Shown: in pieces, positions 1,013 to 54,434 of the stretch
Layout: every line of letters begins with the position of its first letter
Position numbering within the stretch: position 1 is the stretch's first letter
From: Anaspis maculata
Lineage: Eukaryota; Arthropoda; Insecta; Coleoptera; Scraptiidae
Assembly: GCA_949128115.1 (NCBI GenBank)
Contig: OX421963.1
Span: forward strand, 2,604,001-2,668,000
Length of the DNA stretch: 64,000 bases
Direction: 5' to 3'
Program-made: the position numbers and the translations under genes
The notes under the pieces: generated by a model
What the model saw: only the letters and a program-made list of their open reading frames with translations
The model's database searches: none
Told to the model about the DNA's origin: nothing

Positions 1013-1023
1013 CCGCATCTGCG

Positions 1024-2067: not shown

Positions 2068-2084
2068 ATGTAGCAGTTCAAGCA

Positions 2085-2560: not shown

Positions 2561-2590
2561 ACCTAGACAACAGCCAATGGCAGGCCGGAT

Positions 2591-2622
2591 TTTTTACACA
2601 ACAGAGCGTCTATAGAATGTTA
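2591..2622 (+). repeat. Left flank of the fold-back insertion
   Basis: TTTTTACACAACAGAGCGTC...GAATGTTA matches 8,393-8,432, which continues directly into TTTTTTACAGAATAGCACT. In the present copy the continuation is found only after the 2.2-kb fold-back, at 4,869-4,891. The same word also occurs reversed at about 2,500-2,545, so it is part of a dispersed repeat. Confidence 0.6.
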
Positions 2623-4868: not shown

Positions 4869-4891
4869 TTATTTTTTTACAGAATCGCACT

Positions 4892-5445
4892 TATAATTTT
4901 CTCAACAGCATTTGTTGACAAGGTGCATTGCAAGAAGTGTAATATTGTCAACACCAAATTCATCGGGTTATTATTAATTGTCGCCATCATCCAGGAATTT
5001 CAATTTCAACAAAAACAGATGGCTTGTACTGTTCTCTGCTTATACAGTATGGATCGAATCTCCAAGTGCCTGAACACCCAAACACCTTAAAATAGCCGTA
5101 ACCAACACTAAGAAAACGAAAACAATGAGTGACAGACAAACCAGTTCAGGTTAGGTACTTATTGCTCTAATTTTTGTAGTGTTGGTTACGACTATTTTCA
5201 GGTGTTTAGATTCGGTTTTGCCGATTTTCGCGCGCTCTGCAAAAAAATATTTTGGTACCTTACGTGCCTTTCGAGATTCCGATAGCATACTGTATAAACA
5301 GAAAACAGTCCACGCTATCAATTTCCGTTGAAATTTAAGTTCCTGATCGATGGCAATAATGAAAACACGGCTGTTGAATTTGGTGTTGGCAATTAAACAT
5401 TTCTTGTAGTGCACCTAGTCAACAAATGCTGTTAGAAAATTTCGA
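4892..5445. mobile_element. 550-bp fold-back element
   Basis: Arms of about 225-290 bp are inverted around 5,130. The outer ends read AATTTTCTCAACAGCATTTG on the left and, reverse-complemented, AATTTTCTAACAGCATTTG on the right. Inner landmarks are CAACACCAAATTCA, TATACAGTATG and GTAACCAACACTA in both arms. It lies between two parts of the repeat that flanks the larger fold-back, so it is probably a second insertion into the same host repeat. No gene is present. Confidence 0.65.
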
Positions 5446-5770
5446 GGCCAGAATGAGCTCAAGAACGAAGAAGCTGATCGAAATCAACTTGAGGTAGGTC
5501 ATTTTGCCATATTTCCGCATGAGAAAAAAAATCTTCTTGAAATCAAGAAAAACTAGACTTTGCCAAGGGAATTATTTGTTTTTAATCGCAAAGATTGGTG
5601 AAAAATGTATCTTTTCGGGTCTTCCGCCACCACCTTTCCAAGGTGGAAGAGCGAGCGGCGGCTTGTCGAATTCGGAAACTTGGTATGTTAATCAGGACAC
5701 AAAATTGAACCAGACTGTAAATTTTCGACTCTCCGCGACCTTCTGCAAAGTTAACCCTATTTTAATGTAT
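5446..5770 (+). repeat. Inverted repeat with conserved peptide, copy 2
   Basis: This is the partner of 2,085-2,560. The frame NELKNEEADRNQLE at about 5,452-5,493 is followed directly by GTAGGT, then by non-coding-looking DNA and the conserved block AGCGGCGGCTTG...GGTATGTTAATCAGGAC. A long frame over 5,504-5,809 is out of register with the conserved peptide and is not called. Confidence 0.5.
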
Positions 5771-5810
5771 CGGTGGACTGTACTAGACCAAATAGTGAGA
5801 AACAAATAAA

Positions 5811-7429
5811 TTAAGAAGAAAATCAATTTAACAAGTCTTTAGTTGGAATCCAGGTTGAACTTATGATGATACTGTCCTATGGAAACCGCAGGTTTAATCA
5901 CACTGTAGCAGGTTTAGATGATTAGTTACAGGACCTCCTGCATAGTCCATACTATGTCTTTCCACTTCGGAAAAAATAGTAGGTAGAGGGTTGAAATTTT
6001 GTACACACGTTTCACTGATGGTCATAATTGACCTATAAAAAGTCCCCTGGAATCCGAGCTTAGGAACCCAATGTCCATCAAGTCTTGAAAACTTGTTTTT
6101 TCAGCGAAGAAGTCCTTGTCTTGACTCAAGATTATTCTTTTTGCAATGTAATGACGATTTCATATGACCATTTCAACAATAGCCATATACGATTTCATTA
6201 TTTGCATAGGATGCGAATTCAAGATGGCGGCCAAAAAGAAAAAACAGTTGACTATCTTTTGTCATTAAGTCAATTGACAATTATTGTCATTTTGTCTTTC
6301 GTCATCTTTAGACATTAAATATGATGATCACATTTCATTTCTCACACGATTCTCAATTGAAAACTAAAATTACACTTCAGTATCGTTCAGTATCTCAAAA
6401 AATCATTGATGTATTAACAAAACAAGGATTTGGTGAATTTCCCACTTTTTTCAGGGAATTTCAAAAAACGTTGAAAATATTTCAGGATTGTTTGCAGCAC
6501 CTTCAACAGCATAAAATTTGGATTTATATTCGGAGATTTTTATAGCTTCAGCTCTTATGGTTCCTGAGATAGGAGTACCTATTTATTTATTTATTTTCTT
6601 TACCTGCAGGTTATGAATTCGACTGTTTTACTCCCTTGAAACATAATAAAAGCAACATTTTTTTTTCCATCTCAGAGGTCAAAAGAGCTGGATATATGAA
6701 AATTACCATATATATTCGCAATTTCATGCTTCTGATGGTGCTTTAAGGCTAAAGGGGACTGAAATTGAGTACCAAGTGTGCGACAGAGAGAAAATACATG
6801 AAAAGTAATAAAATGTTTTTGGGAAAACCATTAGTCCAATTTTAGATCTGAAAGAAGGGTTATACTGAGATTTCAATTCTATTTGATGCACTAGTCAAAA
6901 AAAAAATCCAAAAATTTTTTTTAATTTTTTTTTTCAATTTCACACATTAATTCTAATTTTTTCAAAAATCGCAGGTAGTCATTTTGAAGTACTGAGAATA
7001 TCAAACATGACTCCGTTTTTAGAATTTTTGTAGAATAAATAGTGCCCTCCGAAACACATTTTGAAAATCTCTCTTTGATATTTGCCGCCCGCTGCAGCTG
7101 TTCTCCGCGATGAGTCATTCACGATAAAGGTAGTGATCACTTTCTGCACACATGGTGTTATGATGTTTTCTGAGAAATAGGCGATGTAAATAGAGCAGTA
7201 GTAAAGATTTGTGACATCGTGGTATTACGCCGATATATTTCGTTGCTACGATTTCTGAAATTGTAATATTTTTTTCAAGTTGATCATTTATCTCACGAGA
7301 TCACACTATCTAGATCTAGAATCTACTGATACTCCAAGATACCTATATCCAATTATAAAGGGACAAACATTGTAAAATCATATTGCAATTGCAAAACAAT
7401 AGACTGCAAGTGCACAAATGTATTTAAAA
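5811..7429. other. AT-rich intergenic DNA, no gene seen
   Basis: Homopolymer-rich DNA. Short frames at 6,085-6,545 lack any recognisable motif. One CAAGATGGCGGCC word lies at 6,221. Nothing else is supportable. Confidence 0.5.
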
Positions 7430-7735
7430 CTATACAGGGTGGTGAAAATTTTGATGCTCACCATTGGTATTTTGGAAACGGTGAGAGATACGATGTCGGT
7501 TGAATTAGAAAAAAGTTGCATTTTTGTGGCGATTGAGAATCTGAAAAGAAACTTTGAATATTTTGATTGGTTCACGATTTATCACGAAAAAACTGAAAAT
7601 TTTGATTCCAGAAATTATTTTTCATCTTTCCAACAATTCAAGCTATTTCAATCAAACTTGGTAGTTTTATGTTTTTGATCACTTCGAGTCGATCAACGTT
7701 GACAGAAATTTTCCAGGCCGTCTAGATGTCTAGAT
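7430..7735 (+). repeat. Dispersed repeat, copy 1 (CAGGGTGGTGAAAATTTT)
   Basis: This segment is the inverted counterpart of about 12,690-12,985. Shared landmarks are CAGGGTGGTGAAAATTTTGA, CACCATTGGTAT, TGTGGCGATTGA, TTTATCACGAAAAAACT and a terminal CTAGA-rich end. Identity is roughly 85% by eye. It is non-autonomous transposon debris and no protein function is assigned. Confidence 0.6.
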
Positions 7736-8392
7736 GAGAGCAAAAGAAGATTTCTCTTGGTTTATCTGCAAAAACCGTGAAACAAATTGTATAATAGAAG
7801 ATCCGTCATTGCTATGTTTGGTATTCTTTGGTAGTGCAGAAGGCGGAATGATAATCACACAAGCAAGATAAGAAAAATGGTCGTAAGACAAAATGGAAGT
7901 TCAACATTCATTTGATACATAATTTATTTATTTGATTGTTTCGTTAATGGACAATTTGTTATAATTTAATGAGGTACTGTGGTAATAAAAATATAGAATG
8001 AAAATGCAATGATTTTGAATTTTTCGGGACTGATTTGGGTTAATAGCAAGTTAATAGCTTAAATAGTCTCCTTGGGTAAAATAATGACGATTTGAAATTT
8101 CGCGGGGTTTCAGGGCGCAGGGCTGCAACCTCGAAAAGAAAAAAAACTTGCAAACAAAAAATAGAACTCTCGGGATGACGTCATTGTGAGCATTCAAGGT
8201 CATTGTAGAAGCGACCGCGTTTTTGGCGCGAAAAAAAAAATTCAAACTTTAATCTTCATTTAAAGAATGGGGAAATTTTTAAAAATTTTTTTTTTTGGGC
8301 GGAAATTATTGTGGATGACGTTTTTAATGATTTTATGAGGTAATCGTCTCAAAATAAAATTCATGCAAGGACCCTATTGCCGACACGGACTT
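7736..8392. other. Intergenic DNA, no gene seen
   Basis: AT-rich sequence with poly-A and poly-T runs and no coding or repeat structure that I can support. Confidence 0.4.
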
Positions 8393-8480
8393 TTACATAA
8401 CAAAGCGTTTATGGAATGTTATTTTTTACAGAATAGCACTATTCTTTTCTTCTATCTTGAACGGTAAGGCCGCTATGGGA
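8393..8480 (+). repeat. Paralogous empty site of the 2.2-kb fold-back
   Basis: TTTTACATAACAAAGCGTTT...GAATGTTATTTTTTACAGAA joins, without interruption, the two flanks of the fold-back at 2,623-4,868. The single TTA at 8,430-8,432 corresponds to the two TTA copies there. Confidence 0.7.
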
Positions 8481-8488
8481 TATTTACG

Positions 8489-8842
8489 CTAGGATCGACC
8501 ACTCTTTATCTTCCCATAGCTTCCAGTTACTGGGTTCAATGCCTGTTCTAAATTTTCATTGAAATCAAAGATTGAAATTGGCTGCTCCCAATGGGCGACA
8601 GACTGCTGAGATAAGGTTGTTGTACTTGCACCAGGGTGTACCGTTGGTGTATGGGTGAACTTTTTTTGAATTTTCGAATGTTTCAAGAATTTGATTTCAA
8701 CAAAAATCGACAGGGGTCTTATTTCTTGCGGACTATGAATAATGTATGATGATACCGGACGGGAACCGCTCACGCTTGCAGGTGGGCGGCACGCGGTGAA
8801 CTTCAAAGGGAAATATTCAAAATTGATTTCGGTCGATACTAT
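8489..8842 (-). other. Open frame, possible exon of unknown gene
   Basis: A minus-strand frame of about 105 codons (8,806 down to 8,489) has a less biased composition than its AT-rich surroundings and includes a His/Pro/Thr-rich part (THTPTVHPGASTT). A possible acceptor, TTTCCCTTTGAAG, lies just upstream on the minus strand. There is no recognised domain and no paralogue in the window, so this may be chance. Confidence 0.2.
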
Positions 8843-10161
8843 TGATGATATTTGAATTTTGAAAAAAGGTTATTATACAATATTTACCACAGAATAAAAT
8901 GACTACCTGGGATTTTCAAAAAAAAATTGAAAAATTTGAGAAAATCAAAAAAAATTTCCCAAAAAATACAAAAATCAAAATTTTTGGCTACAGCATCAAA
9001 TAATTATATATTCTAAAAATAATAACGTTTGAATTTTTGAAATCGGTCTATTGAGTGAATTTTGAGAATGTTAATAGTTTCCGCGCCATCTCGCGTCTCA
9101 GAAACACATTATTTTATCGTCCCCTTTAGCCTTAAGCACTGAGCAACGGTACACACAGATTCCAAATTGTCCTAGACAATCAGAAGTTATCCCAATTTGA
9201 AACAGGAGAAAATTTTCGGTGTGTCGTATTCAATGTTGCGTAGTTTATTTGTAAAAAAAAATCGGTTGTGTCACCCCAAAACTTCCCCGACGAGTAGCAA
9301 GGAACGGATGGAAATTTTATTATGAAATGAGATCCCTTCGGAAGGGAAATTAGAGAAAAAGATTGAGGAATTGAGATATTTTTTCCAATAAGGGATTCAA
9401 TTAGAGCTCCGCTCCATCATTTTTGAGTCTGTGTCTCGATATGCTAAGCCGGTGGATTTGAAAGCGGGAAACTCTCGGAAAACTTGAATTTCAAGAGAAA
9501 TTGCATGAAAATGTTCAAGAACCCATCACTCTCTATTACCAATTAACCAAACTGTTCACAATCACAAGCTAGAAAGTTAGAAATTTGCAGTTTTTCATTA
9601 AAAACGAAATTATGTAGAGAAAAAAAAAGCGAGTGAGGCCGTCAGACTCACTAGTAAGTGACTAAGTGAAGGGTGATTCATTTGAAGATACTTTTTCTAG
9701 TAGGCTTTTCATCACTGATCAAACTGTCGAACTGGCTATTCTTTGGCCCCCAGAAAAGGCGCAAAATCGACAGAGACCTCTAAACAACAGGTTAATTAGT
9801 GCACGCCATATAATTATACGCTATAGGTGTATGCTTGAGTGAGTTATGCGTTACGAAAACAAAGAAATTGAACTCGGAAGTAAGGCCGTGCGAAGGGTGA
9901 AGATATTTGCTCTGGCCGGTGGAGTACCACCTGAAATTAATTATTGAGTATTATGAGTTAGGTACCTACTTATTATCCATTGAATGGTGTGATGTACGTC
10001 ACTACTTCTTTCAAGTCGATTCGACGATTGAAAGGGGTTATTGAAGAGATGGCCGACTCATTCATCCCGACTCAGACAACGCCTGGAACTCCGCAGTGCA
10101 GCTGACCACAAGACTGGTATTGACCTGATTGACGTGACGCGAATGGACCAAACCGAAATGC
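8843..10161. other. AT-rich intergenic DNA, no gene seen
   Basis: Long A and T runs up to about 9,000, then mixed-composition DNA. No frame with recognisable protein signal and no terminal repeats were found. Confidence 0.45.
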
Positions 10162-10169
10162 CGCGAGAT

Positions 10170-10956
10170 TAAGGTGACCAACCGTCCTGATTTGGTAAGG
10201 AGTAAGGACAGGTTTAGATTTTTACATCTTCGTCCTGTTTTACGTTCATGTACTGATTTGTCCTGATTTTAAGCAAAAATACTGGTTAGTCCTGATTTCA
10301 AGCAAAATCCTAGTTTTTCTGATTTTAAATTTGCCGCGAAAATATCAAGCACTTAACCACCTCACTTTTTTCCACATCATCACCCTACCACTTTTTTTCC
10401 ACATACTTCCGTTCCTGTCCCTATTACACTTGACATTATAGGTCTGTTTCTTTGTCCTGCTCTAACTTACCTACCCCGGAGCAGACGTTGCCTAGCAACA
10501 ACCAATCGGACAACTCTATTTCCGGCTCTAAGCGCTCCAGAGTAAGTTAGAGCAGAGCAGTACAAAGGAGCAGACCTTATATTCGCAGATGGGTTCTACA
10601 ACCTACCAAAGAAATAGAAGGTTTAATTTTGTGTTCTTTCCATTAGGTATGGAATTTTATTTCTAATGATCACGCTTGAATTTCTTGTGTTATTAATAAA
10701 ATTGCCAGAAGGTCTATTTTAAAGAGAACATTTTTGTTCTCTTTTTAGACGGCGATTTTTTTCACTCCTTTTTCTCCCAGACACAGCCCAGGGTTTTTTC
10801 TTATTTCTCAGCAATAGTTGTATTTTTCATATTGGTAAAGTTTTTGGAAAATGGGGAATTTTGCTCCGCCCCCTAGATCCCCCTTTCCCTTTCGCGTGTT
10901 TTCTTTTTTTTTTTTTTAGTGTCCTGATTTTCATTTATTTGAAGTTGGTCACCTTA
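10170..10956. mobile_element. Non-autonomous hAT element, 8-bp TSD
   Basis: The 787-bp unit has perfect 13-bp TIRs, TAAGGTGACCAAC at 10,170-10,182 and GTTGGTCACCTTA at 10,944-10,956. It is flanked by the 8-bp duplication CGCGAGAT at 10,162-10,169 and 10,957-10,964. An 8-bp duplication is diagnostic for the hAT class in this size range. The interior carries several GTCCTGATTT words near both ends, which resemble subterminal transposase-binding repeats. No transposase frame remains. A nested palindrome sits at 10,437-10,581. Confidence 0.88.
10437..10581. mobile_element. Fold-back MITE nested in hAT element
   Basis: The outer ends TATAGGTCTG...CTGCTCTAACTTAC and GTAAGTTAGAGCAG...CAGACCTTATA are inverted around a GC-richer centre containing GTTGCCTAGCAAC. 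The unit is about 145 bp and lies inside the hAT-type element, so it inserted later or was carried along. Confidence 0.65.
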
Positions 10957-11474
10957 CGCGAGATCCCACTTGAATTGCCCCTTTGTTTCTATGCTATCAA
11001 GATGGAACCCCCGGAAATCTAGGAAGCTACAAATGAAGGATTTTATGTAGTGTCGAAGTCAAGCATTCAACAGGAATTGTGTCCTCCGACCATCTAAACT
11101 GCGCAACAGTGAATGTGTCCACCTCGAAAATTTTCCAGGCCCTCTAGATTTCAAATTATGATGAGTCAACTTTTTTTTCTTATGGCCGCCACATTGGATT
11201 TTTGCACTAATAGATAGAGAAAAAAATTAGCTTTTCGAATTAGTAACCAACACGTTCTTTTTATTATGACATTTGTTGCGTCAAATTTCGAAATTTTCGT
11301 AGATCATTGACAAAATCGGGAATGCTTTGAGAAACAATTGAAATATTATCAACAGCAACAACAAAAAAAGTGACGGATGGTGTGCAATTGACGTATCTAA
11401 CTTCTTAATCGTGTTTTGTGCTTGTTTGTACCGAGAATTCATAAATTAAATGGGTCAAGGGTGTCCGTGAGTTC

Positions 11475-11585
11475 AAAAACGTCTGTCGGTACTAACATCG
11501 TTCTTGTTAAAGTTTGACAAATTTATTACAAAAGGAGTAAAGATTACCCTAGTTTCGACAGACGTTTTTGAATTCACAGCACGAA
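11475..11585. mobile_element. 110-bp MITE in fold-back arm
   Basis: Ends GTTCAAAAACGTCTGTCG and CGACAGACGTTTTTGAATTC are inverted. The opposite arm of the host fold-back (near 12,366-12,376) passes straight from the left flank into CACGAACCTG, so this unit is an insertion into one arm only. Confidence 0.6.
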
Positions 11586-11730
11586 CCTGTAATATAGCTG
11601 GACTGATGATAACAGAGGGGGAAATGACGCCAGGCGGGCGCTGCCATGAGATTATGTGGACGTTGGGTTTTTGTTTTCAAGGGTTGGCATCACCTGCCAC
11701 GGCAACGGTCTGACTCTACGAGTTTACCTA

Positions 11731-11947
11731 GGTATATCCTGTTCACTTTTTATTTTCAGTAGAATGACATTTTGGAGCAAAAATAAAGTGACAAGCTGGA
11801 GCGCTGGGAGGATACGGCTGACGGCCGCTGATAGTTTCGATCCAAAACTTTGCAGGTGCCATCAGCCGTAGCCGAGCCCCCCATCTTGTCACTTTATTTT
11901 TGATACAAAAAGTCATTCTACTGAAAATAAAAAGTGAACGGGATATA
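11731..11947. mobile_element. 217-bp palindromic MITE, TA-flanked
   Basis: TATATCCTGTTCACTTTTTA...AGTAGAATGAC is mirrored by GTCATTCTACTGAAAATAAA...GGATATA. The arms of about 100 bp surround a GC-rich centre. The ends are consistent with a TA target duplication, as in mariner-type MITEs. Confidence 0.65.
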
Positions 11948-12689
11948 GGTACAAGTCGCAGAAATCAAAACCAGAAATCAAGATATTATCCCAGATCAAG
12001 ATAGCGCGGCACTGACAGCCAAGCACCGACTGTCACCGAGCGAAAATTATTCCAGTGAACCTCAAACGTTCTATGTAATAACGGTAAACTCTTGCAAATC
12101 TCCATAGATCGGTAACAAATTAAGCTGAAAATTATATTAATATACACTAAAATCATATATCTATAAAAAAGAGTATATAGTCATAGTCATCAATACATAA
12201 AACGGCTCCGTTGAATATTGAAAGCCACTCTCGAGGCCGCTACCAAACGTTTTGAGTACCGGTCATGTACCGGTGCATAATAAGATGGCGACTTCCAGAG
12301 GAGGGGTCATAATTTGTTGGGGGAATCTGGGGAATTAGAAGTCCAGCTATACTACAGGTTCGTGATTCACAGGCATCCTTGACTCGTTTAATTTATGAAC
12401 TCTCGGTATAAACAAGCACAAAACACGATTAAGAAGTTAGATACGTCAATTGCATATAAAATCTGTCACTTTTTGTTGTTGCTATTGATAATATTTCAAT
12501 TGTTTCTCAAAGCATTCCCGAATTTGTCAATAATTTACGAAAATTTCGAAACTTGACGCTGAAAATGTCATTAAAAGACGAACATGTTGGTTACTAATTC
12601 GGAAAGCCAATTTTTTTCTCTATCTATTTGTGCAAAAATCCAATATGGCGGCCCTAAGAGAAAAAAAGTTGACTATCATATTTTAAATC

Positions 12690-12985
12690 TAGAAGGCCTT
12701 AAAAATTTCTGTCGACGTTATTCGACTCGGAGTGATCAAAAACATAAAACTACCAAGTTTGATCGAAATAGCTTGAATGGTTGGAAAGATTAATAATAAT
12801 TTCTGGAATCAGAATTTTTAGTTTTTTCGTGATAAATCGGGGGCCAATAAGAATATTCAAAGTTTCTTTTCAGATTGTCAATCGCCACAAAAATGCGCAA
12901 CTTTTTTCTACTTCAACCGACCTCGTATCTCTTACCGTTTCCAAGATACCAATGGTGAGCATCAAAATTTTCACCACCCTGTATA
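12690..12985 (-). repeat. Dispersed repeat, copy 2
   Basis: Inverted counterpart of 7,430-7,735. It directly abuts or overlaps the right arm of the composite fold-back, suggesting that both belong to a larger family whose full-length form is not in this window. Confidence 0.6.
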
Positions 12986-13118
12986 GCTCTTTCGAAATTT
13001 CCCAGGGAATAGGGCCATTGCATGGAATTTGGTTCACCTTTTGACTGTCAGGAACGTGACCGTCGCTGGGGGATTATGCTTTGGTTTGGTTGGTATGGTG
13101 ACAACTGACACTTGTGTC

Positions 13119-13324
13119 TGACAGATCCAAAGGTTGTCTTTCCAGTGATAACCGGACAACGTGGCGATGGATTATGGATGAATAATGAAATTATTGTTAG
13201 CGACGTTAGCGTAGATAATGTTGGGTTACCAAAATACCAGATGTTTCCTGTCAAAAGTGGCGTGATTGACAGCCGATTTGACGTTTTCCATTACCAATAC
13301 AGACAAACTGAAAGTCCCTAGGTC
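13119..13324 (+). other. Open frame after a splice-like acceptor
   Basis: A frame runs from just after GTGTCTGACAG (AG at about 13,121-13,122) to the stop near 13,321. It encodes about 66 residues, including VVFPVITGQRGDG and IIVSDVSVDNVGLP. Composition and periodicity look coding, but I recognise no family and find no partner exon. It could be a single exon of an unknown gene, a transposon remnant, or chance. Confidence 0.25.
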
Positions 13325-13544
13325 AAAACGCCCTCTACACGCAATCACCCTATCAAAAGGAAGATCAATATTCAGATCCGTGGCGCCATAAATAACATTA
13401 CCCTAAATATCTTGTGAAAATGCGCTAATTTGTGTGCATCTACTTTCAATGACCAAATTCAAAAGAAATTCTTGAATTTGTAGAAATTTGGTGGCACACC
13501 CTGCTGCAGTTGTCAGTGGCCATCATACAGCACAACGCGATACT

Positions 13545-14490
13545 AGTTCCTTTTACCTGCAACCTGCAACAAGTGCATGGGCGCCCGCAGGATTTTTGTC
13601 AGGGGGGGGCAAATAGCTTTAGTTAGAGAACGTCACATACCTACCTGGCCTAATTTGCGAAGTTCTTTAGATTAGCGCCGCAGGCGAAATTTTTTTCGAA
13701 TAATAATAATAATAATGGTGATAATGATTATTGTGCGAAAAATAAGGAAATATATTTGAAAATTAAACTTAACTTTAGAGAAATTTATTAAAATTTGTAA
13801 TTTTGTACAAAATGTATAAAAATTTACTTATTAAGGCCAGGACCAATTTAAGGCGGTTAGCTTCGATTACTTTGTTTCGATTTTGGTCAATTTGAAGCAA
13901 TACATTTGTCATCTTACCTTCATAGACATCAAGGAAATTTTTTTTCGTAAGGAAGAATTTATTCAGCTGCTCCGGAGCCAGGGGGGGGCAAGTGCCCCCC
14001 CTTGCCCCCCCCTCCGGGCGCCCATGAACAAGTGCACCTGAATCTTTATCTAGTCTCTTCTTCCATATTCTTTTCCATTTCTCCAACATTGTAAGTATAC
14101 TTATTTAGTTTTACTCGTATTTCCTTGGTAACAAAAAATCACCGGGCGCTGTTCGTTTCTTTCTCGTAGCAGTTTTCGTACCTAGCTTTGTTGATAGATT
14201 TTGTGTTGTCTCAATAATTTTCAAATTAGCGCTAGAAGCTAAGACGGACGGACGGACAAGGTGAGGATAAGCGCCAACCCGTCTGGGAAGTGCGCTAAAA
14301 ATATCAATTTCACAATTTGCAAGCATGATGGTTTAAATTTTAAATCGTATATAGTGTGCCACGTGGGAAACGCAGGTGTTTAATAGCTGCCATTTTGACC
14401 GATAAGACCACGTGCCTGCCGCTTTCATGAAGTGGGCGTGGCGAGACTTGACGATTTGACGCCATTTTGCCAGATTTCATGGTTTTTCGA
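13545..14490 (+). repeat. Dispersed repeat D, copy 1 (interrupted)
   Basis: Matches 59,090-59,575 in the same orientation. Shared landmarks are ACCTGCAACCTGCAACAAGT, CAACATTGTAAGTATACTT, CACCGGGCGCTGTT, GACGGACGGACGGACAA, GGGAAACGCAG and GACGCCATTTTGCC. The copy is split by the 449-bp element at 13,578-14,026. No frame is shared at protein level; it is probably a non-autonomous transposon or a duplicated intergenic segment. Confidence 0.7.
13578..14026. mobile_element. DNA transposon with TGGGCGCCCG ends and 10-bp TSD
   Basis: TIRs TGGGCGCCCG (13,578) and CGGGCGCCCA (ends at 14,024) are followed inward by a poly-G tract on the left and a poly-C/poly-G tract on the right. Flanks AACAAGTGCA at 13,568-13,577 and 14,027-14,036 are duplicated. 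The homologous locus near 59,109-59,118 has a single AACAAGTGCA, giving an independent empty site. A duplication of 9-10 bp does not fit hAT exactly; superfamily is unassigned. A minus-strand frame through the right end (HGRPEGGARGG) is a translation artefact of the terminus. Confidence 0.82.
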
Positions 14491-14499
14491 TTATATTTG

Positions 14500-15060
14500 A
14501 CAGTGGTTCAGGAATTGTGGGAAAAATAGACCAGCCGGATTTTTGTATACAGGTGTTTCAATATTTTTGCCTGGTGAAATTTAGAAAAATTCCCGAGACC
14601 CGTCGATTTTTGTTTCGAGGGGGGCATCTGAAGCATACATTGGCAAATTTCTATCTTCAACCCCCTCACCTCAACCCACCCCAACTTCGCAATTCCCAAT
14701 GACACTACCTAGTACCTACCTTGCGATACATCAAATTCAAGAGATAAATTAAAGAATTAAATTATCTTTCTGGAATTTTTTTATTTTAATTTTCAACCCC
14801 ACCCCTCTTTCTCCTAAAATTCACTTGGGAGTTTAATTTAATATCATCGACCCCTGAATTCTCTCTAATTTAGTCAGTTTCATCCTAAATAGCATCGAAG
14901 AAAAGAATTTTTGGTGGAAAAAGTGCTACCCAAATTCACCCCTTTGCTCTCTCACACCCCAATTTCGAAATTTACCAAGACACCACCTACCTACCCTGAG
15001 ATACATCGATAGAAGGGAATTTGATTCTTCCCCTGGGAACATTTTTTTAAAATTTTACCC
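14500..15060. repeat. Degenerate copy of the repeat at 61,900-62,600
   Basis: Blocks such as CATCGAAGAAAAGAATTTT, GGAAAAAGTGCTACCCAAATT and TGAGATACATC parallel those around 61,950-62,070 and 62,230-62,350. It is a diverged dispersed repeat without coding potential. Confidence 0.45.
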
Positions 15061-15792
15061 TGTCCTCCATCAAATTGGACATTCACCGTCAGTTCCACAA
15101 GAAATATGATCAGCGATCAAGCCTGATTGCAGATTAACTGAACTTTTTTCTGCTAAATGCTAAGCGATTAACCACAAAAAATGCCTGAACTCTTCATTTT
15201 TTCATTATTGATAGATAAACCAGCATTTTCATTGATCAGTAAGCTACAAATTGAGTAACAAAAATCGTAAATCAACTGGTCTCGGATTATCTTTTTTGTG
15301 GAACCCAGGGTCAGAGTATTTCAGGAGAGATACAGGGTTTTTGAAAATTTTCCCTTTGAGAATGAGACCATAAATGAGACTCGATTCAAAATTTCGTGTT
15401 CCGTAAACGATTTGGGACTTTCAATGATTGTGGAAGGTGTTATTTACGATTGAATGTATGCAGAATAACGTACGGCCGTACGCATAAGGAAACGTACGTG
15501 TCAGTAGATAAATATTGTGGTGGAAAAGCTGGAAAATGTGAATTTCGCAAGTAATAAGATGCATAGACTTCTGGATGATAAAGCAGCGTGCGATTTTTAG
15601 AAATATCACACTTGTGTGATATTATGTACTTTCGAAGAGTCAAGAACACGTAAAAAACGGCACTTTCATAGTGGTCGTAGGAAAAATATTTATCAAGTCG
15701 TATTTCAATAAAGCATTCGATAACAATGAACGAGTCTATGTATCCCATAATAAATCTTTGGGATCTTTTCTCTCAGTGCAATCACTGTCACT
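15061..15792. other. Intergenic DNA, no gene seen
   Basis: AT-rich DNA with a short palindromic word CGTACGGCCGTACG near 15,470. Minus-strand frames at 15,421-15,748 overlap one another and lack any recognisable motif. Confidence 0.4.
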
Positions 15793-15850
15793 GCATGCCG
15801 CTTTTGGCGGCCATCTTGTGGCGGAAAAAAATAATTTAAGTCGCGAATAG
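15793..15850 (+). promoter_or_regulatory. Displaced upstream block of gene B
   Basis: GCATGCCGCTT..GGCGGCCATCTTGTGGCGG..AAAAAATA..GTCGCGAATA matches the block 80-140 bp upstream of gene A's start. At gene B it lies 3.3 kb upstream, separated by LINE and other sequence. If it is a promoter or first exon, gene B would have a long 5' intron; if not, B has lost its promoter. Conservation of a non-coding block in both paralogues supports function or simply the extent of the duplication. Confidence 0.5.
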
Positions 15851-16787
15851 GCGAAATTCAGTGCCATTTCTGCGCTGGCGCAACCATGCTAGGGGATTTG
15901 AGAATCCACGTTTCCCGAAAGGCTTCTGCGCATACCTGTGAAAGTAGGATGTTGCCAAATCTCATATCACGACAACAAGTTGACAACACTGTAATACGGT
16001 GTGCGTGTGTAATGTCACGCAAATGGCAGCTGACAGCCGGTGATCGCCTTGCAGCTCGTTGTGTTTCGTATCACCTGAATCTTTTCTGCGTCTTTTTGCC
16101 ATACGGCACGTAACATTTCATTCTGAACCAGATTAAAAGTTGAATGGTTAGGACTTAGGAGGTGATGTTTGTTTACATTTCGATTATTGATCGACAGTTG
16201 CCATTGACAGTGACACTCCATGCGTCAAAATTGAAATTACCGCGCTCTGCAGGTATGCGTTCTCATGTATGCGCTGAAGTGATGTACGTGATGGTAAACG
16301 TGGATAGTGCCGTATGCTAACACATGTAAAAAGCGTAATTTCAACATTGTCTATTATTGAAACGACTGGAAATGAAACTTTAAAATAAGCTATGGAAAAA
16401 AGAGTGTTTCTTGATCTCTCATTGTGTTCAAGACCAGCAATGATGGATCAGTTCTAGATACACAATGAGCGAAAATATGGTAACGTGTTTATCAGTTGGT
16501 GTGTTTTTGAAAATACCGCCCTACTTCTGGTATTCTTCTCTGCCTTACGGTTGCCGTCCTGTCTGTCAGTGGCATGAAACTGCATGTAAACAAATGGTAA
16601 CTAAAATTTTATCGGGTTATATGTATAATATATCAGAGGTTTTGTGTTTTCTGTTGTTTTTTTTTTCAAAAATGACGGGCAGTTTGTTGAGTGCCTGGCT
16701 GCAAAAACCGTACGAAAAGAACATTACAGTTCCATTTCATGTGTGTTTCATCATACTACTACATCATAACTTCCAACAGAGACATAG

Positions 16788-17330: not shown

Positions 17331-17455
17331 CAAGTGAGTTATGTCAATTTTTGACAAATTCACGTTTTATGATGCCGGTTCTCTCCAAGGTCATGTTCTT
17401 GGCTCAAATGTGGTAGTGAAGTGCATAACTTCGCTCTACAAAGTAGCCCAATTAG
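17330..17455 (+). repeat. Foreign segment replacing the LINE RT start
   Basis: TCAATTTTTGAC.AATTCACGTTTTATGATGCCGGTTCTC...GTGCATAACT.TGCTCTACAAAGTA is nearly the same as the reverse complement of 20,930-21,052. It stands where LINE proteins normally carry the first RT motifs, so the copy suffered a replacement (insertion plus deletion) rather than simple decay. Confidence 0.6.
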
Positions 17456-18764
17456 TATTCTTCCGACACTCTCGACGATCCTGGAAAAAGTGATGGAGGG
17501 ACAGTTGACGCAGTTTTTGGAGAGAAAGAGACTGATACCACCACTTCAGTCTGGCTTTAGGAAGGGTCACGGCTGCAACACTGCTCTAGTTAACATCACC
17601 GATGATATACTGATAGCAACTGATGGAGGCCTTTGCACGCTACTTGTCCTCCTCGATTACACAAAGGCCTTTGATACACTAAACCACGCTATCTTGAAGG
17701 CTAAACTTCGCCACATGGGTCTCTCGCTCAGCGCTGTCGAGCTCCTTGCTTCCTTCCTGGACAACAGAACTCAGTCGGTGATATACAATAACAACAAGTC
17801 GAACTCTCTACCCACCAGGAGTGGAGTCCCTCAAGGTGCAAGACTTTCACCGTTGCTGTTTAAGATCTACATCTCGGGATTCTCCAAAACCATTCTGTCC
17901 GGCACACCTCATTTCTACGCTGATGATACTCAGATATACTTGTCTTTCCACCCTAGTGAAGCGAAGCAGGCCTACGCTGCGATGAGTTACGACCTCGACA
18001 ACCTGGCGAACGAGTCCGAAAAACACTGCCTTCAGCTTAGCCCCAACAAATCGTCTGCTATACTGTTCGGCAGAAGAAAGAGTAGACTCCAGTGTGGCGA
18101 CATCATCGGACTGAGACTTGGACCGGACGAGATCAGTGGAGTGAAGGTTGTCCGCAACCTTGGCCTGTACATGGACAGTGATTTGCGGTTCACTGAGCAT
18201 GTTTCCAGATGCCTACAGAGAGCTCACATGAGTCTCAGAAGAGTCTACCAAATACGCCACCTTTTGAATAGCAAGACCAAGACGGCGCTCTGCGACACCC
18301 TAATCTTGTCCCACTTCAACTTCTGTGACACTGTCTACGGAACGCATCTGTTGGAGAGCGACGCTCGAAGAATCCAGAAAATGCAGAACTCTTGCATCCG
18401 TCTTGTCTGCGGCATAAAAAGAAACGAGCCCGTGTCATATAAGCTACAAGAACTCAACTGGCTGAACATGAACAAGAGAAGACAACTGCATACCTTGACT
18501 TTCTACCATGACATCATAAGAAACAAGTGTCCCGCTTACCTGTACAACCGAATTTCCTTTCGTACTGATGTCCATACCATGAATGTCCGATTCAAGGGCA
18601 GATTGACCCCTCCTCTACACAACTCTCAGATGTTCAAGAGATCCTTCAGCTACAACATCGCGAAGTACTACAATACGGTGGCGGAAGACATAAAAAATAC
18701 GAGCCGTCAGACCTTTAAACGCCACATACGAGAACTTCTGCGAGAAAATCTGCTGACGTTGTGA
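17421..18764 (+). CDS. Non-LTR retrotransposon reverse transcriptase (partial)
   Basis: The uninterrupted frame has 447 codons; the ATG at 17,421 lies in the foreign segment, and LINE homology begins at about 17,456 (PTLSTILEKVMEGQL). Visible RT motifs are SGFRKGHGCNTALVNITDD, the motif-A block LLDYTKAFDTLNH with its catalytic Asp, SGVPQGARLSPLLF, the catalytic YADD, and SPNKSSAI. The tail has LILSHFNFCDTVYG and CIRLVCGIKRNEPVS, typical of the C-terminal region of jockey/CR1-type LINE proteins. The catalytic residues are intact and codons are GC-richer than the surroundings, so insertion was fairly recent. Without its N-terminal half it cannot be autonomous. It lies between the displaced upstream block and gene B, probably in a 5' intron. 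Confidence 0.88.
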   Translation: MHNFALQSSPISILPTLSTILEKVMEGQLTQFLERKRLIPPLQSGFRKGHGCNTALVNITDDILIATDGGLCTLLVLLDYTKAFDTLNHAILKAKLRHMGLSLSAVELLASFLDNRTQSVIYNNNKSNSLPTRSGVPQGARLSPLLFKIYISGFSKTILSGTPHFYADDTQIYLSFHPSEAKQAYAAMSYDLDNLANESEKHCLQLSPNKSSAILFGRRKSRLQCGDIIGLRLGPDEISGVKVVRNLGLYMDSDLRFTEHVSRCLQRAHMSLRRVYQIRHLLNSKTKTALCDTLILSHFNFCDTVYGTHLLESDARRIQKMQNSCIRLVCGIKRNEPVSYKLQELNWLNMNKRRQLHTLTFYHDIIRNKCPAYLYNRISFRTDVHTMNVRFKGRLTPPLHNSQMFKRSFSYNIAKYYNTVAEDIKNTSRQTFKRHIRELLRENLLTL

Positions 18765-19069: not shown

Positions 19070-19160
19070 ATATCGGTTTTAATCCAACTTTCCTGATAAA
19101 AGTAGGTAATCATGGGCGTATTTTAATTTGTCATTGATTTATTTTCCAGCCGCATACGCA

Positions 19161-20303
19161 ATGGTGGTTCAAAGCCTGCAGAATTTGGCCTACATCGCTT
19201 GTGCCGAAACATTCTGGAAGAAATGCTATTCGGATGGAAGAACTGACCTCGCTGAATATTGCTGGAATCCCCCGGGCGCAGCTCCCAATCCAGCAGCCAA
19301 GGAACTTTGTCGACAAGTCGAAGCTTTGGATCTGCCCGAACGTTTGAAATCGGAACTGAAGTGGGTCGTTCTGGAAATCGGAAAAAGAAAACCGGAAATG
19401 ATTCGACGGTGGGTGGGGGTCATTCGTAGGGTGACTGCGCCCCCACAAAAATTGAAACCGCTCATCACTGATCCGGCAGCGAAGCTGCAGGCACCGCCAC
19501 TGCAAGAATTATTTCCAGAATGGAACGACAGAAATCTCGTAATGGAATTCTTTTATTCTTTGATTGCGATGATAGATCCGCGTGACGATCCGACCGCTGC
19601 CATACGACGTTCTTGGACAACCGAGTTTCTGCCTCTCCAATCGACTTTCCTGGATAATTTCGCATACATCTGGATTCCATTGGTTGAAGGCGAGGAGATG
19701 ATTTTCACTAGAGCGTGTGCTCCACGAGATCGTAGCTATCTCTCTTCACTTAGAGGATTGATGAATCCGGATTACGGATATCGCAACCATTTGATACCAT
19801 GGTTCTTGTTCGAAGTGTTGAACGATGACCAGAGAAGCAAGATTCTCAGACTTGGGCAGACGGTTCTCATGGATTCTAACGCCTTCCGGCACTTCTTTCT
19901 GGAAATCTTCCGTCATTGGCCTTGGCAAGACGTAGCCTTTGAGTATTTCCGCAACGAAGAAACGTTGAGGAACACAGATATGCGTTTTTTGACGGAGCTT
20001 GTGGACTATTACAAGAATGATGAAATAAGACTAAATAAGACCATGGTGGAGACAGGAATAATACCGCTGAATACGTCATTCTACGCGAACGTGAAATTAT
20101 TTCTTGAGCGCCTCCAATCAAGTGTAGGGTTGCCAACCGCCCTACTTCCGGTAGGACATTCCAACTTCGTCAACAAATGCCTTCCGTCCTACAAAGTTGA
20201 CTACACCACTACCACTTCGTTATACTATTTCCAGCGTGCACAGGAATTAAGCCCCAGTGTCTCGTTACTAGTCTTGTACTATTTTTATACTAGAAATCTA
20301 TGA
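19161..20303 (+). CDS. Gene B: lineage-specific protein, paralogue of gene A
   Basis: The frame encodes 380 residues from the ATG at 19,161, 11 bases after the conserved acceptor TTTATTTTCCAG (AG at 19,148-19,149). It aligns with gene A over almost its whole length, with blocks EALDLPERLKSELKW, LPLQSTFLDNFAYIW, IPWFLFEVLNDDQRSKIL and FRHWPWQDVAFEYF. Homology stops after LFLERLQSS at about 20,123. The last 60 or so residues come from an unrelated segment starting with TAGGGTTGCCAACCGCCCTA, which resembles the end of a hAT-type element, and from an 80-bp tandem duplication. The final protein is therefore chimeric or C-terminally altered. No signal peptide, membrane segment or known domain is visible. 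Function is unknown. Confidence 0.65.
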   Translation: MVVQSLQNLAYIACAETFWKKCYSDGRTDLAEYCWNPPGAAPNPAAKELCRQVEALDLPERLKSELKWVVLEIGKRKPEMIRRWVGVIRRVTAPPQKLKPLITDPAAKLQAPPLQELFPEWNDRNLVMEFFYSLIAMIDPRDDPTAAIRRSWTTEFLPLQSTFLDNFAYIWIPLVEGEEMIFTRACAPRDRSYLSSLRGLMNPDYGYRNHLIPWFLFEVLNDDQRSKILRLGQTVLMDSNAFRHFFLEIFRHWPWQDVAFEYFRNEETLRNTDMRFLTELVDYYKNDEIRLNKTMVETGIIPLNTSFYANVKLFLERLQSSVGLPTALLPVGHSNFVNKCLPSYKVDYTTTTSLYYFQRAQELSPSVSLLVLYYFYTRNL

Positions 20304-30449: not shown

Positions 30450-30455
30450 GATTGA

Positions 30456-30516
30456 AGTAGATAGAAATAGTTCCTTCAAGCACATTAAGAGGAGGATCTC
30501 AACTACGCATATGTGG
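30456..30516 (+). repeat. Left terminal inverted repeat
   Basis: Starts AGTAGATAG and continues through TTCCTTCAAGCACATTAAG to ACGCATATGTGG. It differs from the right repeat at about five of 60 positions, which indicates an old insertion. Preceded by GATTGA. Confidence 0.88.
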
Positions 30517-30919
30517 AAAAAAAAATGGAACAGAAAAATTTAAAAAAAAAAAAATTTTTCAATTTTTTTCAATTTCATTTTTTTTTTCATTAATTGATTC
30601 ATTCTACGAGAGAATTATCTGATATGATAATTGAATCTTACTTCTGATTGATATCTGAGTAAAAAAAATTGATATCAATTATTTTTCAAAGAATACCCAT
30701 GTTCAGTGACTATTTTGATTGACTTGCGTATTTGAAATGTATACTTTTTTCAGAGTATTATTGATATTGATAAGTGATAAGAAGTATGGAAAAAAAAGAG
30801 GAAAAACACATTTGTAAACGTCAATTTATTGCATAATTCATGAAAAAAAAATACAATAATTCATCAATTATATAATTAGATGTGAAATAAGGACGATTTG
30901 TATATCCTAATATATAATA

Positions 30920-31585
30920 ATGATAATAATAATAATGATACAAGTACAAATAATAACTAATAATAATGATGATAATGACATTAGTGAAATTGGTGCAACA
31001 GCTCTGCCCACCGATCGTGACATTTCTTTCACAGATGATACACCTCTGATTGATCAGCTAAAAAATTTGTTCAAATCTGGAAGCGATGAGCTAGATACAA
31101 CATATGGACCACATGTTGAAGGAAAGAATTTGATGATGGGGTTGACACCCGTGAACATAAGTGGAAGTACATCAAATATTTCTATTAGGGGTCAGTTGTT
31201 TACTGCCACTCCGGGTTTATACGAGTTGATATTCTTGAAGCACCCCAAGAATTATACAAATCTCGATTCAAGAGCATATAAAAAAATACTGAATCTAACG
31301 AACATTGCCAGACTTGACTTTTCTCCAAGGAAGCGAATAGTTGGAAATAGAGGTTATAAATATACAAACATAATCAAATCTCTGCTGGACTATAAAGGTG
31401 GTTCTGGGATGGAATATCTCCAGTAAAATGAAAAACCTATCGAATATAAATATTATGACAACTTAGATGAGCTCGTAGATAGACTAGTTTTGTTACATGG
31501 TTCTATGAAATCTGGCAATCGATCATGCATGAACGAAATCATTTCTCTGGAGGAGGAGTTACGTGAATCTGGTATAATATGTTAA
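30920..31585 (+). pseudogene. DUF8207-like frame broken by one in-phase stop
   Basis: The frame opens with an Ile/Asn/Asp-rich low-complexity start that may not be the true N-terminus. The recognisable core has YGPHVEGKNLMMGLTPVNI, then FTATPGLYELIFLKHP and NRGYKYTNIIKSLL, in the order seen in DUF8207 proteins of hemipteran genomes and adintovirus-like elements (family knowledge; role not established). A TAA at 31,424-31,426 interrupts the frame, but the same phase stays open to the TAA at 31,583-31,585 and still shows the typical C-terminal block (NLDELVDRLVLLHGS, NEIISLEEELRESGI). One nonsense change and no frameshift therefore separates it from the family's usual length. It is the first frame of the element, 32 bp upstream of the next. 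Confidence 0.75.
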
Positions 31586-31617
31586 CATAGAAAGTAACTT
31601 TCTCCAGTAGTTTTACA

Positions 31618-31926
31618 ATGTCTATCGATAAGTTTGGACGTTCATCCACGACAGCTACATCATCATCATTATCACACACTAAATCTCGACAATATTTCAA
31701 ACTAACAGAAGATAATAATATTGATTGGGAGAATCGACGCTTGACCAATGTGAAATACCCTAAAGATGAGAATGATTGTGATTGTATATGTTGGATGATC
31801 TTAAAGGTGATCCAATCAAAGGATGTTTCTAAGAATCGGAATTGCAACGAACAAAGCAGCCTGATATTTATTTGGTGGAGAAAATACTACGAAGATCTGG
31901 ATCTAAATTGTACGTTAAATGGTTAG
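31618..31926 (+). pseudogene. Short KFGR-type frame, probably truncated
   Basis: The first part reads MSIDKFGR, a Ser/Thr-rich stretch, FKLTEDNNIDWENRRLTNV and YPKDENDCD. A KFGR start followed by an RLxNVxxPxDxxD motif recalls a short protein I associate with DUF8207 neighbours in hemipteran elements, and the latter motif is also common in fibre-like proteins. After about residue 58 the frame loses similarity and ends at 31,926, while chromodomain coding starts in another frame at 31,833. The likely history is an internal deletion joining this gene to the 3' end of the integrase gene. Role unknown; a virion part is only a guess. Confidence 0.5.
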
Positions 31927-31976
31927 GAATGTCTGGAGCGAACGATAGTTGGATTAGATCGGATAATATTGTTTGA
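31833..31976 (+). pseudogene. Chromodomain tail of a Polinton integrase
   Basis: A short frame (shifted by +2 against the KFGR frame) reads PDIYLVEKILRR, KLYVKWLG and NDSWIRSDNIV before TGA at 31,974-31,976. The pattern Y-VEKIL..YVKW-G..-WI is a chromodomain. Polinton/Maverick integrases carry such a domain at the very C-terminus, and the stop right after SDNIV fits that end. The catalytic rve core (DDE) is absent. It may have been left when an internal deletion removed the rest of the integrase. It is too short for a usual gene screen. Confidence 0.65.
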
Positions 31977-31988
31977 GCTCTCTAGTCG

Positions 31989-32801
31989 TTGATGAACCAT
32001 CATTTAATCAACATCGAGTATCGTGTGTGTATGCGTGAAGTATCAAAAATGGAAAATTTGATGCAAGCGGATGATGTTATAGAAAGAGATCCTTGGACAT
32101 TTGTCGATAATTTGATGGCTAAATATGACGCTGACATTCAGTTGGAGAGTGATTTACTCTATCACACGGTTTTAAATGGTAACTTTCTGAGAGTATCCAT
32201 AGGGCTCAGTCCTGCTAGAGATTTCGCCCCTACTATCCATATGACAACACCATCTGATTCAAGTTATATATCATTTATAAGAGAAGAGTGGTGTGACTCC
32301 ATAAAAAGTGTCGGAATAGAATTATCTGAGGTTTCATCATCACCACCATCATCATCGCCGCCATCATCGTCATCATCATCATCATCATCATCATCATCGG
32401 CTTCACCGTTGTATTAAAGACCATCAACATCATCGGGGGATGTGCTGATTTTCGAAAAATTCTCCATCAAATTTGATGCTGATGGTAGAGCAAGATATAT
32501 ACATGGCAGAGGACAGACACTAGATTTGAATGATGACATCGTTATTGAAATTCATCGTATCAAAGATCTAGTTAAATATAGGATGGAAATGTTGGAAGTG
32601 ATTGACTTTCCAAATTTCTATAAAAATGTATTGTCAACTGTTCATTTAATGTTAAAAGAATATCCCCTTAATACATCACCATATGGGATGATTAAACATA
32701 TTCTGTGTAATATTAAACATTTAGCACATATTTCCTGTATGTTAGAGTGTACTGAGCTTCATTATAATAAAATTTTAGATGATCTTAATAGATATAAGTG
32801 A
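31989..32801 (+). pseudogene. Unknown frame with Ser tract, one in-phase stop
   Basis: One phase is open from 31,989 to the stop at 32,799-32,801 except for a single TAA at 32,415-32,417. The first half (about 142 codons) has charged segments (WTFVDNLMAKYDADIQLESD) and ends in a Ser/Pro then poly-Ser run encoded by (TCA)n/(TCN)n. The second half (about 128 codons) continues without frameshift: FSIKFDADGRARYIHG, then helices with many His/Ile/Leu. I recognise no family; it may be an adintovirus-lineage protein or cargo. AATAAA at 32,826-32,831 could serve as a poly(A) signal. That a second gene of the element also holds exactly one in-phase TAA is notable. Confidence 0.45.
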
Positions 32802-33080
32802 GCTTTATTATATGTATGATTATGCAATAAATAGGTATTAACAAAATACGTTTTTTTTTTCTTTTACAACACCCCATTAGTTATGATCACAACCACTTCA
32901 AAAAATTATACAGTTCAATCACATTGCTCAATTAAAATAATTATTGATTATAACCAATCATTATAGAATTTTTCGATATTTCACATCAGTAGGTCATTAG
33001 ATTTATATATATTATCAATCAGTAATAAGATTCAATTATCATAATATGAAATATTGCCATATCTTCCCCTCCCCTTTATT

Positions 33081-33141
33081 CCGCACATGCGCAGTTGAGA
33101 CCCTCCTCTTAATGTGCTTGAAGGAACCATCTCTATCTACT
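33081..33141 (-). repeat. Right terminal inverted repeat
   Basis: Ends ...CTCTATCTACT at 33,141, directly followed by GATTGA at 33,142-33,147. Its reverse complement shares TTCCTTCAAGCACATTAAGA and CTCAACT.CGCAT.TG with the left end. Confidence 0.88.
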
Positions 33142-33147
33142 GATTGA

Positions 33148-53147: not shown

Positions 53148-54434
53148 TCAGTTTGGTTTTGAAAAGGTTTTTTGACTATCTGTGTGAAGACCAAACGGGA
53201 TAGAATTATATTGAACAACCGAACTGTAACTGAAAGACCGCCTGTATAACGTCGTTCGGTGCTTAGGAATTGTCAGCCTTTGAGAATTCCGAATGTTAAC
53301 ATCATGAATCGCGGTCCTGGGTATCAACTTGTTTTTCAAATAAGCATTGCAGGAGTTTGCTGTTGTGAGAATTCCGTGAACAAAAGTGGCCAAATGAAGA
53401 TTTCTACGATTACTCATTTTGAGCCAGAATAGTTCATTTATTTTATGTGACACATGATCATAACGTCTGAGACCGAAAACGTACCTACAGCAGGAATTTT
53501 GAACTCTCTGGACTCTGTTCTGGGCGCTGACATCCAAACAGGGCCCGTAAAGAAAGTCACAGTAATTAAAATGCGACAGTACCAATGAATCGCAAAGTAA
53601 CTTTCTCAGGGGCAATGTCAGAAAATGCCTACCTGAGTATATCAGCCTTAGCGCCGAGTAAGCTCTTTGCACCAGCTGCTTAACATGCTCCTTGAACCTA
53701 AATTCAATGTCAAGAGTAATTCCGAGACTTTTCACTGCATCCACAAAAGGCACGACCGTGTCATGTACGGAAATCAAAAACTCTTCCTGGTTTAAAAGAA
53801 AGTTTCTCTGTACTTTACTAGCAAACAACATGGCCTTAGTTTTCAAAGGATTCAATATAAGATTATGTTTCTTAGATAACAGTCGAATTGTTTCTAGGTC
53901 TTCGTTAATCACTTTAGCAGAAAGCAGACTGTCTGCGGGGTTGAAGCTGTAAAAAATTTGTATATCATCTGCATACGCTTGTAGTTTACAGTTTTTGATA
54001 GCTGTGAGTATAGTTGATGTGTAAATTAGAAACAAAAGAGGTCCTAGTATAGAGCCTTGAGGAACTCCTGACCAAACTCGAGCTTGCGAGGAAGTTAGAT
54101 TATTGAATGAAATTTGCTGGTACCGGTCATTCAAATACGAGACAATGAGAGAAACAGAATTTTTATCGAATCCATAATACTTCAATTTAGCACACAAAAG
54201 TCTGTGATCAACTGTATCGAACGCCTTGGAAAACTCTAACAAAATCAAAGCGCTGCACATCTTTTTGTCAGAGGCTGAGATTATGTCATCCGTGATTTTA
54301 ACCAATGATGTCGCCGTTCCACATCCCGGTCTGAAACCAGACTGACAGTCAGGCAAAAGCTGATGTAATGTAAAATAGGTATCAATTTGACAATATAAGA
54401 CTTTTTCGAATATTTTAGAAAGAACGGGCATTAG
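53148..54434 (-). pseudogene. Non-LTR retrotransposon reverse transcriptase, 5'-truncated
   Basis: A 427-codon minus-strand frame starts at the first RT block (MPVLSKIFEKVLYCQI) and shows SGFRPGCGTATSLVKITDDI, SGVPQGSILGPLLF, catalytic YADD and LNPLKTKAM, with the usual C-terminal LVLSHFNYCDFLYGP and CRYVFGLRRYDHVS. In the motif-A block the expected Asp is Glu (ILLEFSKAFDTVDH), which should impair catalysis. No endonuclease is present: the copy begins abruptly at 54,434 against gypsy integrase sequence, as in a 5'-truncated LINE inserted into a gypsy copy. It resembles the LINE at 17,421-18,764 in domain plan but is a different, diverged family member. The frame is otherwise open. Confidence 0.85.

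What the first reader, a model, noticed from the sequence alone, without database searches (positions are those of the whole stretch)
30456..33141. A complete 2.7-kb miniature Maverick/Polinton element
AG...CT termini, inverted ends of about 60 bp and the exact 6-bp duplication GATTGA identify a Polinton-type transposition product, although the unit is about a sixth of normal size. It retains several coding remnants, so it is not an empty MITE. Deletion derivatives of this class that moved as complete units would imply that a small template can be mobilised by a helper integrase. Seen: ends, duplication, frames. Known: Polinton hallmarks. Inferred: helper-dependent mobilisation.
Basis: partly seen in the sequence, partly recalled or inferred. 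Interest (0 to 1): 0.88.

Follow-up and report, generated by a model that had tools for sequence, protein, structure and literature searches.

The report
Miniature Polintons resembling defective virus genomes
The window holds a shrunken copy of a large virus-like jumping element that also lives elsewhere in the same genome, and some sister copies carry one end twice, as if small defective replication products had been inserted into the chromosomes.

Summary
Window 30456-33141 is 2,686 bp with 67-bp inverted ends (60/67 identical) and an exact GATTGA duplication. Its parent is present: four longer copies (three about 16.1 kb, one 29.8 kb) have exact 6-bp duplications; the one mapped gene by gene encodes PolB, double-jelly-roll capsid protein, ATPase and rve integrase. 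The window copy lacks two internal blocks, losing PolB and the integrase core.

Ten short copies (516-3,226 bp) with both ends were found; 8 of 10 have exact 6-bp duplications, all different. Six are left-right deletions, no two sharing junctions. Four carry the RIGHT end at both termini: beyond base 67 their ends are 84-97% alike, against 53-57% in the ten left-right copies compared (shuffle mean 54%). Simple deletion in place cannot make these. In one, a chimeric arm of over 0.8 kb is duplicated as a unit. I read them as snap-back defective genomes integrated as small molecules.

For the window copy, movement as a miniature is unproved: no other found copy shares its junctions. A census failed: genome searches after did not complete.

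The parts
30450..30455 (.). target-site duplication GATTGA, left copy
30456..30522 (+). left terminal inverted repeat, 67 bp
30456..30974 (+). left arm, matches positions 1-522 of the 16,126-bp parent copy, 88.8% identical
30921..30974 (.). zone of deletion junction 1 (parent about 523-12901 missing): both parent sides align here over A+T-rich ATAATGATGATAATGA-like repeats
30921..31780 (+). middle segment, matches parent 12902-13757, 96.4% identical
30920..31426 (+). 168-aa open frame, remnant of the parent's DUF8207 (PF26634)-type gene, cut by a new stop
31781..31784 (.). deletion junction 2: 4 bp not placed on either side; parent 13758-14785 missing, which includes the integrase rve core (about parent 14135-14410)
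31785..33141 (+). right arm, matches parent 14786-16126, 96.5% identical
31989..32801 (+). remnant of the parent's last 266-aa frame (no Pfam match above its cutoff), broken by a stop at 32415-32417
33075..33141 (-). right terminal inverted repeat, 67 bp
33142..33147 (.). target-site duplication GATTGA, right copy

Best explanation
The element is a non-autonomous, twice internally deleted derivative of a resident, recently active 16.1-kb Polinton (Maverick). It belongs to a population of small derivatives that arise when the parent replicates: polymerase jumps at short repeats give left-right deletions, and fold-back (snap-back) copying from the right end gives right-right palindromes, as in defective genomes of viruses with linear DNA. 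These small linear molecules, having proper termini, are inserted by the parent's integrase supplied in trans, with a 6-bp duplication. Shown: parentage, deletions, loss of PolB and integrase core, intact termini and duplications, right-right palindromes at independent sites. Inferred: that the small forms existed outside the chromosome, that replication is protein-primed here, that integrase acted in trans, and that the window copy took this route.
For: Full-length relatives with exact 6-bp duplications and a Polinton gene set. Two internal deletions in the window copy. Ten short copies, 8 of 10 with exact 6-bp duplications, no matches between flanks. Four of ten short copies are right-right: identity of the two ends beyond base 67 is 84-97% against 53-57% in ten left-right copies and 54% mean (59% maximum) in shuffles. 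In L013 the outer right-end arm (96.4%) and the inner chimeric arm (96.9%, gaps left out) are equally alike, so the whole chimeric arm was duplicated in one event before or at insertion. L014 is a 645-bp palindrome whose arms map to parent 16126-15827 and 15775-16126, leaving a loop of about 50 nt.
Against: No second copy with the window's two junctions was found, so in-place deletion is not excluded for it. No extrachromosomal molecule can be seen in an assembly. L013 lacks about 90 bp in one arm (later deletion assumed). Two of ten short copies lack an exact duplication (L014 5/6, L012 4/6). The margin by which the arms of one right-right copy are each other's closest relatives is wide only for L015 (96 against 87 or less) and thin for L013 (98 against 97), L014 (89 against 88) and L016 (91 against 90). 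L015-like right parts at two other sites could mark a mobile small family, but their left ends were not found. No left-left copy was found (0 of 14 two-ended loci).
Confidence: 0.6

Rival explanations
1. Deletion in place: a full-length Polinton inserted at GATTGA and later lost two internal blocks by slippage or end joining; nothing small ever moved.
For: Each of the six left-right short copies has its own junctions, and the window junctions lie in short repeats or carry a few filler bases, as chromosomal repair would leave. The duplication is the same under both models.
Against: It cannot by itself produce the four right-right copies with duplications. Among the 14 two-ended loci found nothing lies between 3.2 and 16 kb, whereas gradual decay should give intermediates; this is a small and search-limited sample.
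Confidence: 0.3
2. Right-right copies arise at the chromosome: after excision or breakage, gap repair copies the right end from both sides by switching template inside the shared 67-bp repeat, keeping the original duplication.
For: Left and right ends share 67 bp in inverted orientation; template switching of this kind is recalled from studies of fold-back transposons, not looked up here.
Against: Both ends of L013 carry the right-type base at 3 of 3 positions (41, 56, 64) that separate left from right ends in the young subfamily, so a switch would have to fall within the first 40 bp; in the older copies these positions are mixed and not informative. The chimeric arm of L013 is duplicated as a unit, which asks for the arm to exist first.
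Confidence: 0.25
3. A Polinton subfamily simply has long inverted repeats, so 'right-right' copies are ordinary left-right deletions of that subfamily.
For: L014-L016 belong to older, 81-91% diverged end types, for which no full-length copy was seen.
Against: All ten left-right copies compared, from end types 74-100% alike at the left end, have only the 67-bp repeat. L013 belongs with the young subfamily (94-97% to its right ends), whose left ends are known and different, and its arms reach into the last coding frame of the parent.
Confidence: 0.07
4. The unit is a MITE or other DNA transposon unrelated to Polintons.
For: Short length, 6-bp duplication.
Against: Nearly every base maps to a Polinton with PolB, capsid and integrase genes.
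Confidence: 0.01

Closest known systems
Polinton/Maverick elements (Polintoviruses)
   Same: 6-bp duplication, AG...CT ends, inverted repeats, gene set of the resident 16.1-kb copies; vertebrate intact Mavericks average about 17 kb with 6-bp duplications (PMC8097293, passages seen)
   Different: The window copy has no PolB and no integrase core and is one sixth as long; the inverted repeats are 67 bp, shorter than the range I recall for Polintons; the end AGTAGATAGA is neither (AGT)2 nor (AG)3 of vertebrates
Snap-back defective genomes of linear DNA viruses (adeno-associated virus)
   Same: One end duplicated in inverted orientation, as in the snapback particles described in PMC8235507 (start of abstract seen)
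   Different: Here the forms are fixed in chromosomes with target-site duplications; AAV is self-primed, Polintons are thought to be protein-primed
Adenovirus symmetric recombinants (Ad12 SYREC) and other palindromic defective adenoviruses
   Same: Palindromic molecules with the same viral end at both termini and foreign sequence between, like L013 and L015
   Different: Recalled only, no call shows it; those are packaged, these are integrated
Ds elements, internal deletions of Ac in maize
   Same: Deleted copies that move with enzymes of the full copy (PMC3260210, start of abstract seen)
   Different: Ac/Ds is cut-and-paste; helper-dependent movement is only inferred here

Membership tests
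Polinton/Maverick (as a derivative) | 6-bp target-site duplication | tested here: met
   GATTGA on both sides; exact in 8 of 10 short copies and 4 of 4 long copies with both ends
Polinton/Maverick (as a derivative) | AG...CT termini in inverted repeats | tested here: met
Polinton/Maverick (as a derivative) | terminal repeats of 100 bp or more (range recalled, from no call) | tested here: not met
   67 bp in the window copy, and similarity also stops there in the four long copies; the subfamily has short repeats
Polinton/Maverick (as a derivative) | sequence derived from an element with PolB, integrase, ATPase and capsid gene | tested here: met
   PF03175 6.6e-7, PF00665 2.6e-15, PF04665 3.5e-7 and 7.5e-8, PF21738 4.5e-75 in pieces of the reference copy; adenovirus-type protease only weak, 0.0056 and below the curated cutoff
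Autonomous Polinton | own PolB and integrase | tested here: not met
   Parent 523-12901 and 13758-14785 are absent from the window copy
MITE-like mobile family | several copies with the same internal structure at different sites | tested here: not met
   0 of 9 other short copies share the window's junctions; search-limited, 40 of 145 candidates scored
Snap-back or end-duplicated defective genome | same end at both termini | tested here: not met
   Not met by the window copy (55% beyond base 67); met by 4 of 10 short copies
Snap-back or end-duplicated defective genome | existence as a replicating linear molecule | not testable with these tools
   needs sequencing of extrachromosomal DNA

The most novel reading that the evidence does not exclude
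The short copies are integrated defective genomes: a record, written into host chromosomes with target-site duplications, of Polinton replication outside the chromosome, including right-end snap-back palindromes and chimeras, that were then inserted by integrase supplied in trans. Polintons would then spawn and mobilise parasites of their own, as viruses do.
Probability: 0.45. Interest if true: 0.78.

Novelty: new variant of a known kind. Interest (0 to 1): 0.58.

Why it matters
Whether Polintons replicate and package as viruses outside the chromosome is still debated; virus particles of Mavericks have not been observed (abstract of PMC8097293). Right-right miniature copies with target-site duplications are a kind of evidence that any assembled genome can supply: they are hard to make by deletion at the site and are what fold-back errors in copying a linear genome would leave. 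They also give a minimal set of end sequences that sufficed for insertion (down to 516 bp).

Tried and rejected
Rejected: MITE of another superfamily (maps to a Polinton); long-repeat subfamily as the source of right-right copies; L015-like right parts at C6 and C3 as proof of a mobile small family (left ends not found in the pieces fetched). L021-L024 at first looked like further short copies, but are a right end framed by about 150-bp inverted repeats, a different composite repeat, and were left out of the counts.

Led nowhere: Pfam on the four short window frames; phage records; host identification by protein search (no match; many reverse transcriptases, named ones mostly beetle and psyllid); paper searches for non-autonomous or miniature Polintons and for palindromic adenovirus forms gave no paper on the point in the listings seen.

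Not done: genome-wide count of termini, polymerase family search over the genome, search with the L015 element, empty-site test. All genome searches after one search failed or did not complete.

Full report
What is there. Window 30456-33141 (2,686 bp) starts AGTAGATAG and ends CTATCTACT; the first and last 67 bases are inverted copies, 60/67 identical; GATTGA stands exactly on both sides. The window lies at C3:2604001-2668000 of a 758-Mb genome of 50 contigs. The host was not identified. Named protein relatives of a Polinton gene are ant and weevil, and of a reverse transcriptase in the window mostly beetle, with one psyllid and one coral, so an insect is likely but untested.

Parent. A DNA search of the own genome listed 96 matches, scoring 40 of 145 candidates, so counts are lower bounds. 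Four long loci have both ends: C5:32161695-32177820 (16,126 bp, AATGAA on both sides), C3:38236926-38253121 (GTGGCG), C2:15885875-15901977 (CATAAA) and C2:120150211-120179981 (29.8 kb, TACAGG), all exact; of the last only the ends and the right 4 kb were read. The C5 copy served as map reference because it was the first complete one on the plus strand. Searched in separate pieces it shows, left to right, a zinc-finger frame, PolB (PF03175), a double-jelly-roll capsid protein on the minus strand (PF21738), a phospholipase-like capsid-type protein on the minus strand (PF08398), a weak adenovirus-type protease below its cutoff, an A32-type ATPase (PF04665), a DUF8207-type gene (PF26634, from the precomputed domains of its relatives), an rve integrase (PF00665) and a last 266-aa frame. 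The C3 and C2:15.9-Mb copies equal the C5 copy in all 350 and 266 codons compared in the last-but-two and last genes: the family was active recently.

Derivation of the window copy. It is parent 1-522 + 12902-13757 + 14786-16126. The first junction lies in A+T-rich short repeats, the second has four filler bases. Lost are PolB, capsid, ATPase and, in the second deletion, the rve core. Over 484 codons, differences from the parent fall 14, 10 and 15 on codon positions 1, 2 and 3, with two new stops and one frameshift: no sign of coding constraint. This fits both insertion as a miniature and decay after deletion in place.

Other short copies. Nine more short loci have both ends: L009 3,174 bp, L010 808, L011 728, L012 1,801, L013 2,152, L014 645, L015 3,226, L016 516, L017 1,047. 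With the window copy, 8 of 10 have an exact 6-bp duplication, L014 has 5/6 and L012 4/6; the chance value is 0.0003 each; no 300-base flank matches another. Left-right copies are the window copy, L009 (1-319 + 12986-14638 + 14912-16126), L010 (1-516 + 15802-16126), L011 (1-335 + 15756-16126), L012 (1-502 + 15694-16126, with an insert of about 0.9 kb) and L017 (1-199 + 13542-14274 + 15989-16126); no two share a junction.

Right-right copies. L013, L014, L015 and L016 have the right end at both termini. After base 67 the two ends of these copies are 97, 84, 91 and 88% alike; in the window copy, the four long copies, L009-L012 and L017 they are 53-57%, the same as shuffled sequence (mean 54, maximum 59). 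This is a sharp split into two classes, not a gradient of repeat length. In L013 the arm consists of right end (parent 16126-15526) joined to a piece resembling L015; outer part 96.4% and inner part 96.9% identical between arms, gaps left out, though one arm lacks about 90 bp. So the chimera was made first and then duplicated in inverted orientation as one arm. L014 is nearly a pure palindrome with a loop of about 50 nt. A left-right element cannot become right-right by deletion alone, and exact duplications in three of these four (5/6 in L014) say that they entered as units or were converted exactly up to the boundary.

Limits on that reading. Within one right-right copy the arms are each other's closest relatives in all four cases, but clearly only in L015 (96 against at most 87); the margins for L013, L014 and L016 are one point. 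Three bases that separate left from right ends in the young subfamily are right-type at both ends of L013; in L014-L016 they are mixed and not informative. L015-like right parts with other flanks (ATCACC at C6, CTTTAC at C3) were found, with 91-98% identity over long stretches, but both are interrupted and no left end was seen in the pieces fetched. Single ends L018-L025 had no partner in 15 further pieces. No left-left copy was seen.

Mechanism. Most likely the short forms are errors of Polinton replication: deletions by jumping at short repeats, palindromes by fold-back of a strand begun at the right end. Vertebrate Mavericks are said to need protein-primed replication with end-motif repeats (PMC8097293, passages). 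AAV defective particles of snapback form show that fold-back genomes arise in a linear DNA virus (PMC8235507, start of abstract). Insertion would be by parental integrase in trans. Rivals are deletion in place for left-right copies and gap repair with template switching for right-right copies.

Verdict. Observation confirmed; interpretation partly supported. The finding is more interesting as a population than as a single copy.

Noticed in passing
L024 426-770 (C3:2668625-2668969, 0.6 kb beyond the window's right edge); L021, L022, L023: A right Polinton end of about 330 bp sits between inverted repeats of about 150 bp in L021 and L024 (parts of the same in L022, L023), with GACATG next to the end in all four: a composite repeat that seems to have captured a Polinton end.
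   Followed up: partly
C4:87533811-87537036 (L015), C6 (L058, L061), C3 (L057, L060): In these copies the parent's right end is split near parent 15887-15890 by about 1.3 kb that includes five copies of a roughly 118-bp tandem repeat.
   Followed up: partly
window 991-2067 and 19128-20303: Two similar open frames (358 and 391 aa) of an unknown repeated protein; the first has no match in the protein database at E 0.001.
   Followed up: partly
window 53148-54431 and 17421-18764: Two reverse-transcriptase-like open frames; the first matches PF00078 proteins at up to 50% identity.
   Followed up: partly
C7:13706598 and C7:13719522 (L018, L019): Two left ends 13 kb apart share the flank GGAGTC and 95% similarity running past the end, so they look like a local duplication of one insertion.
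   Followed up: no
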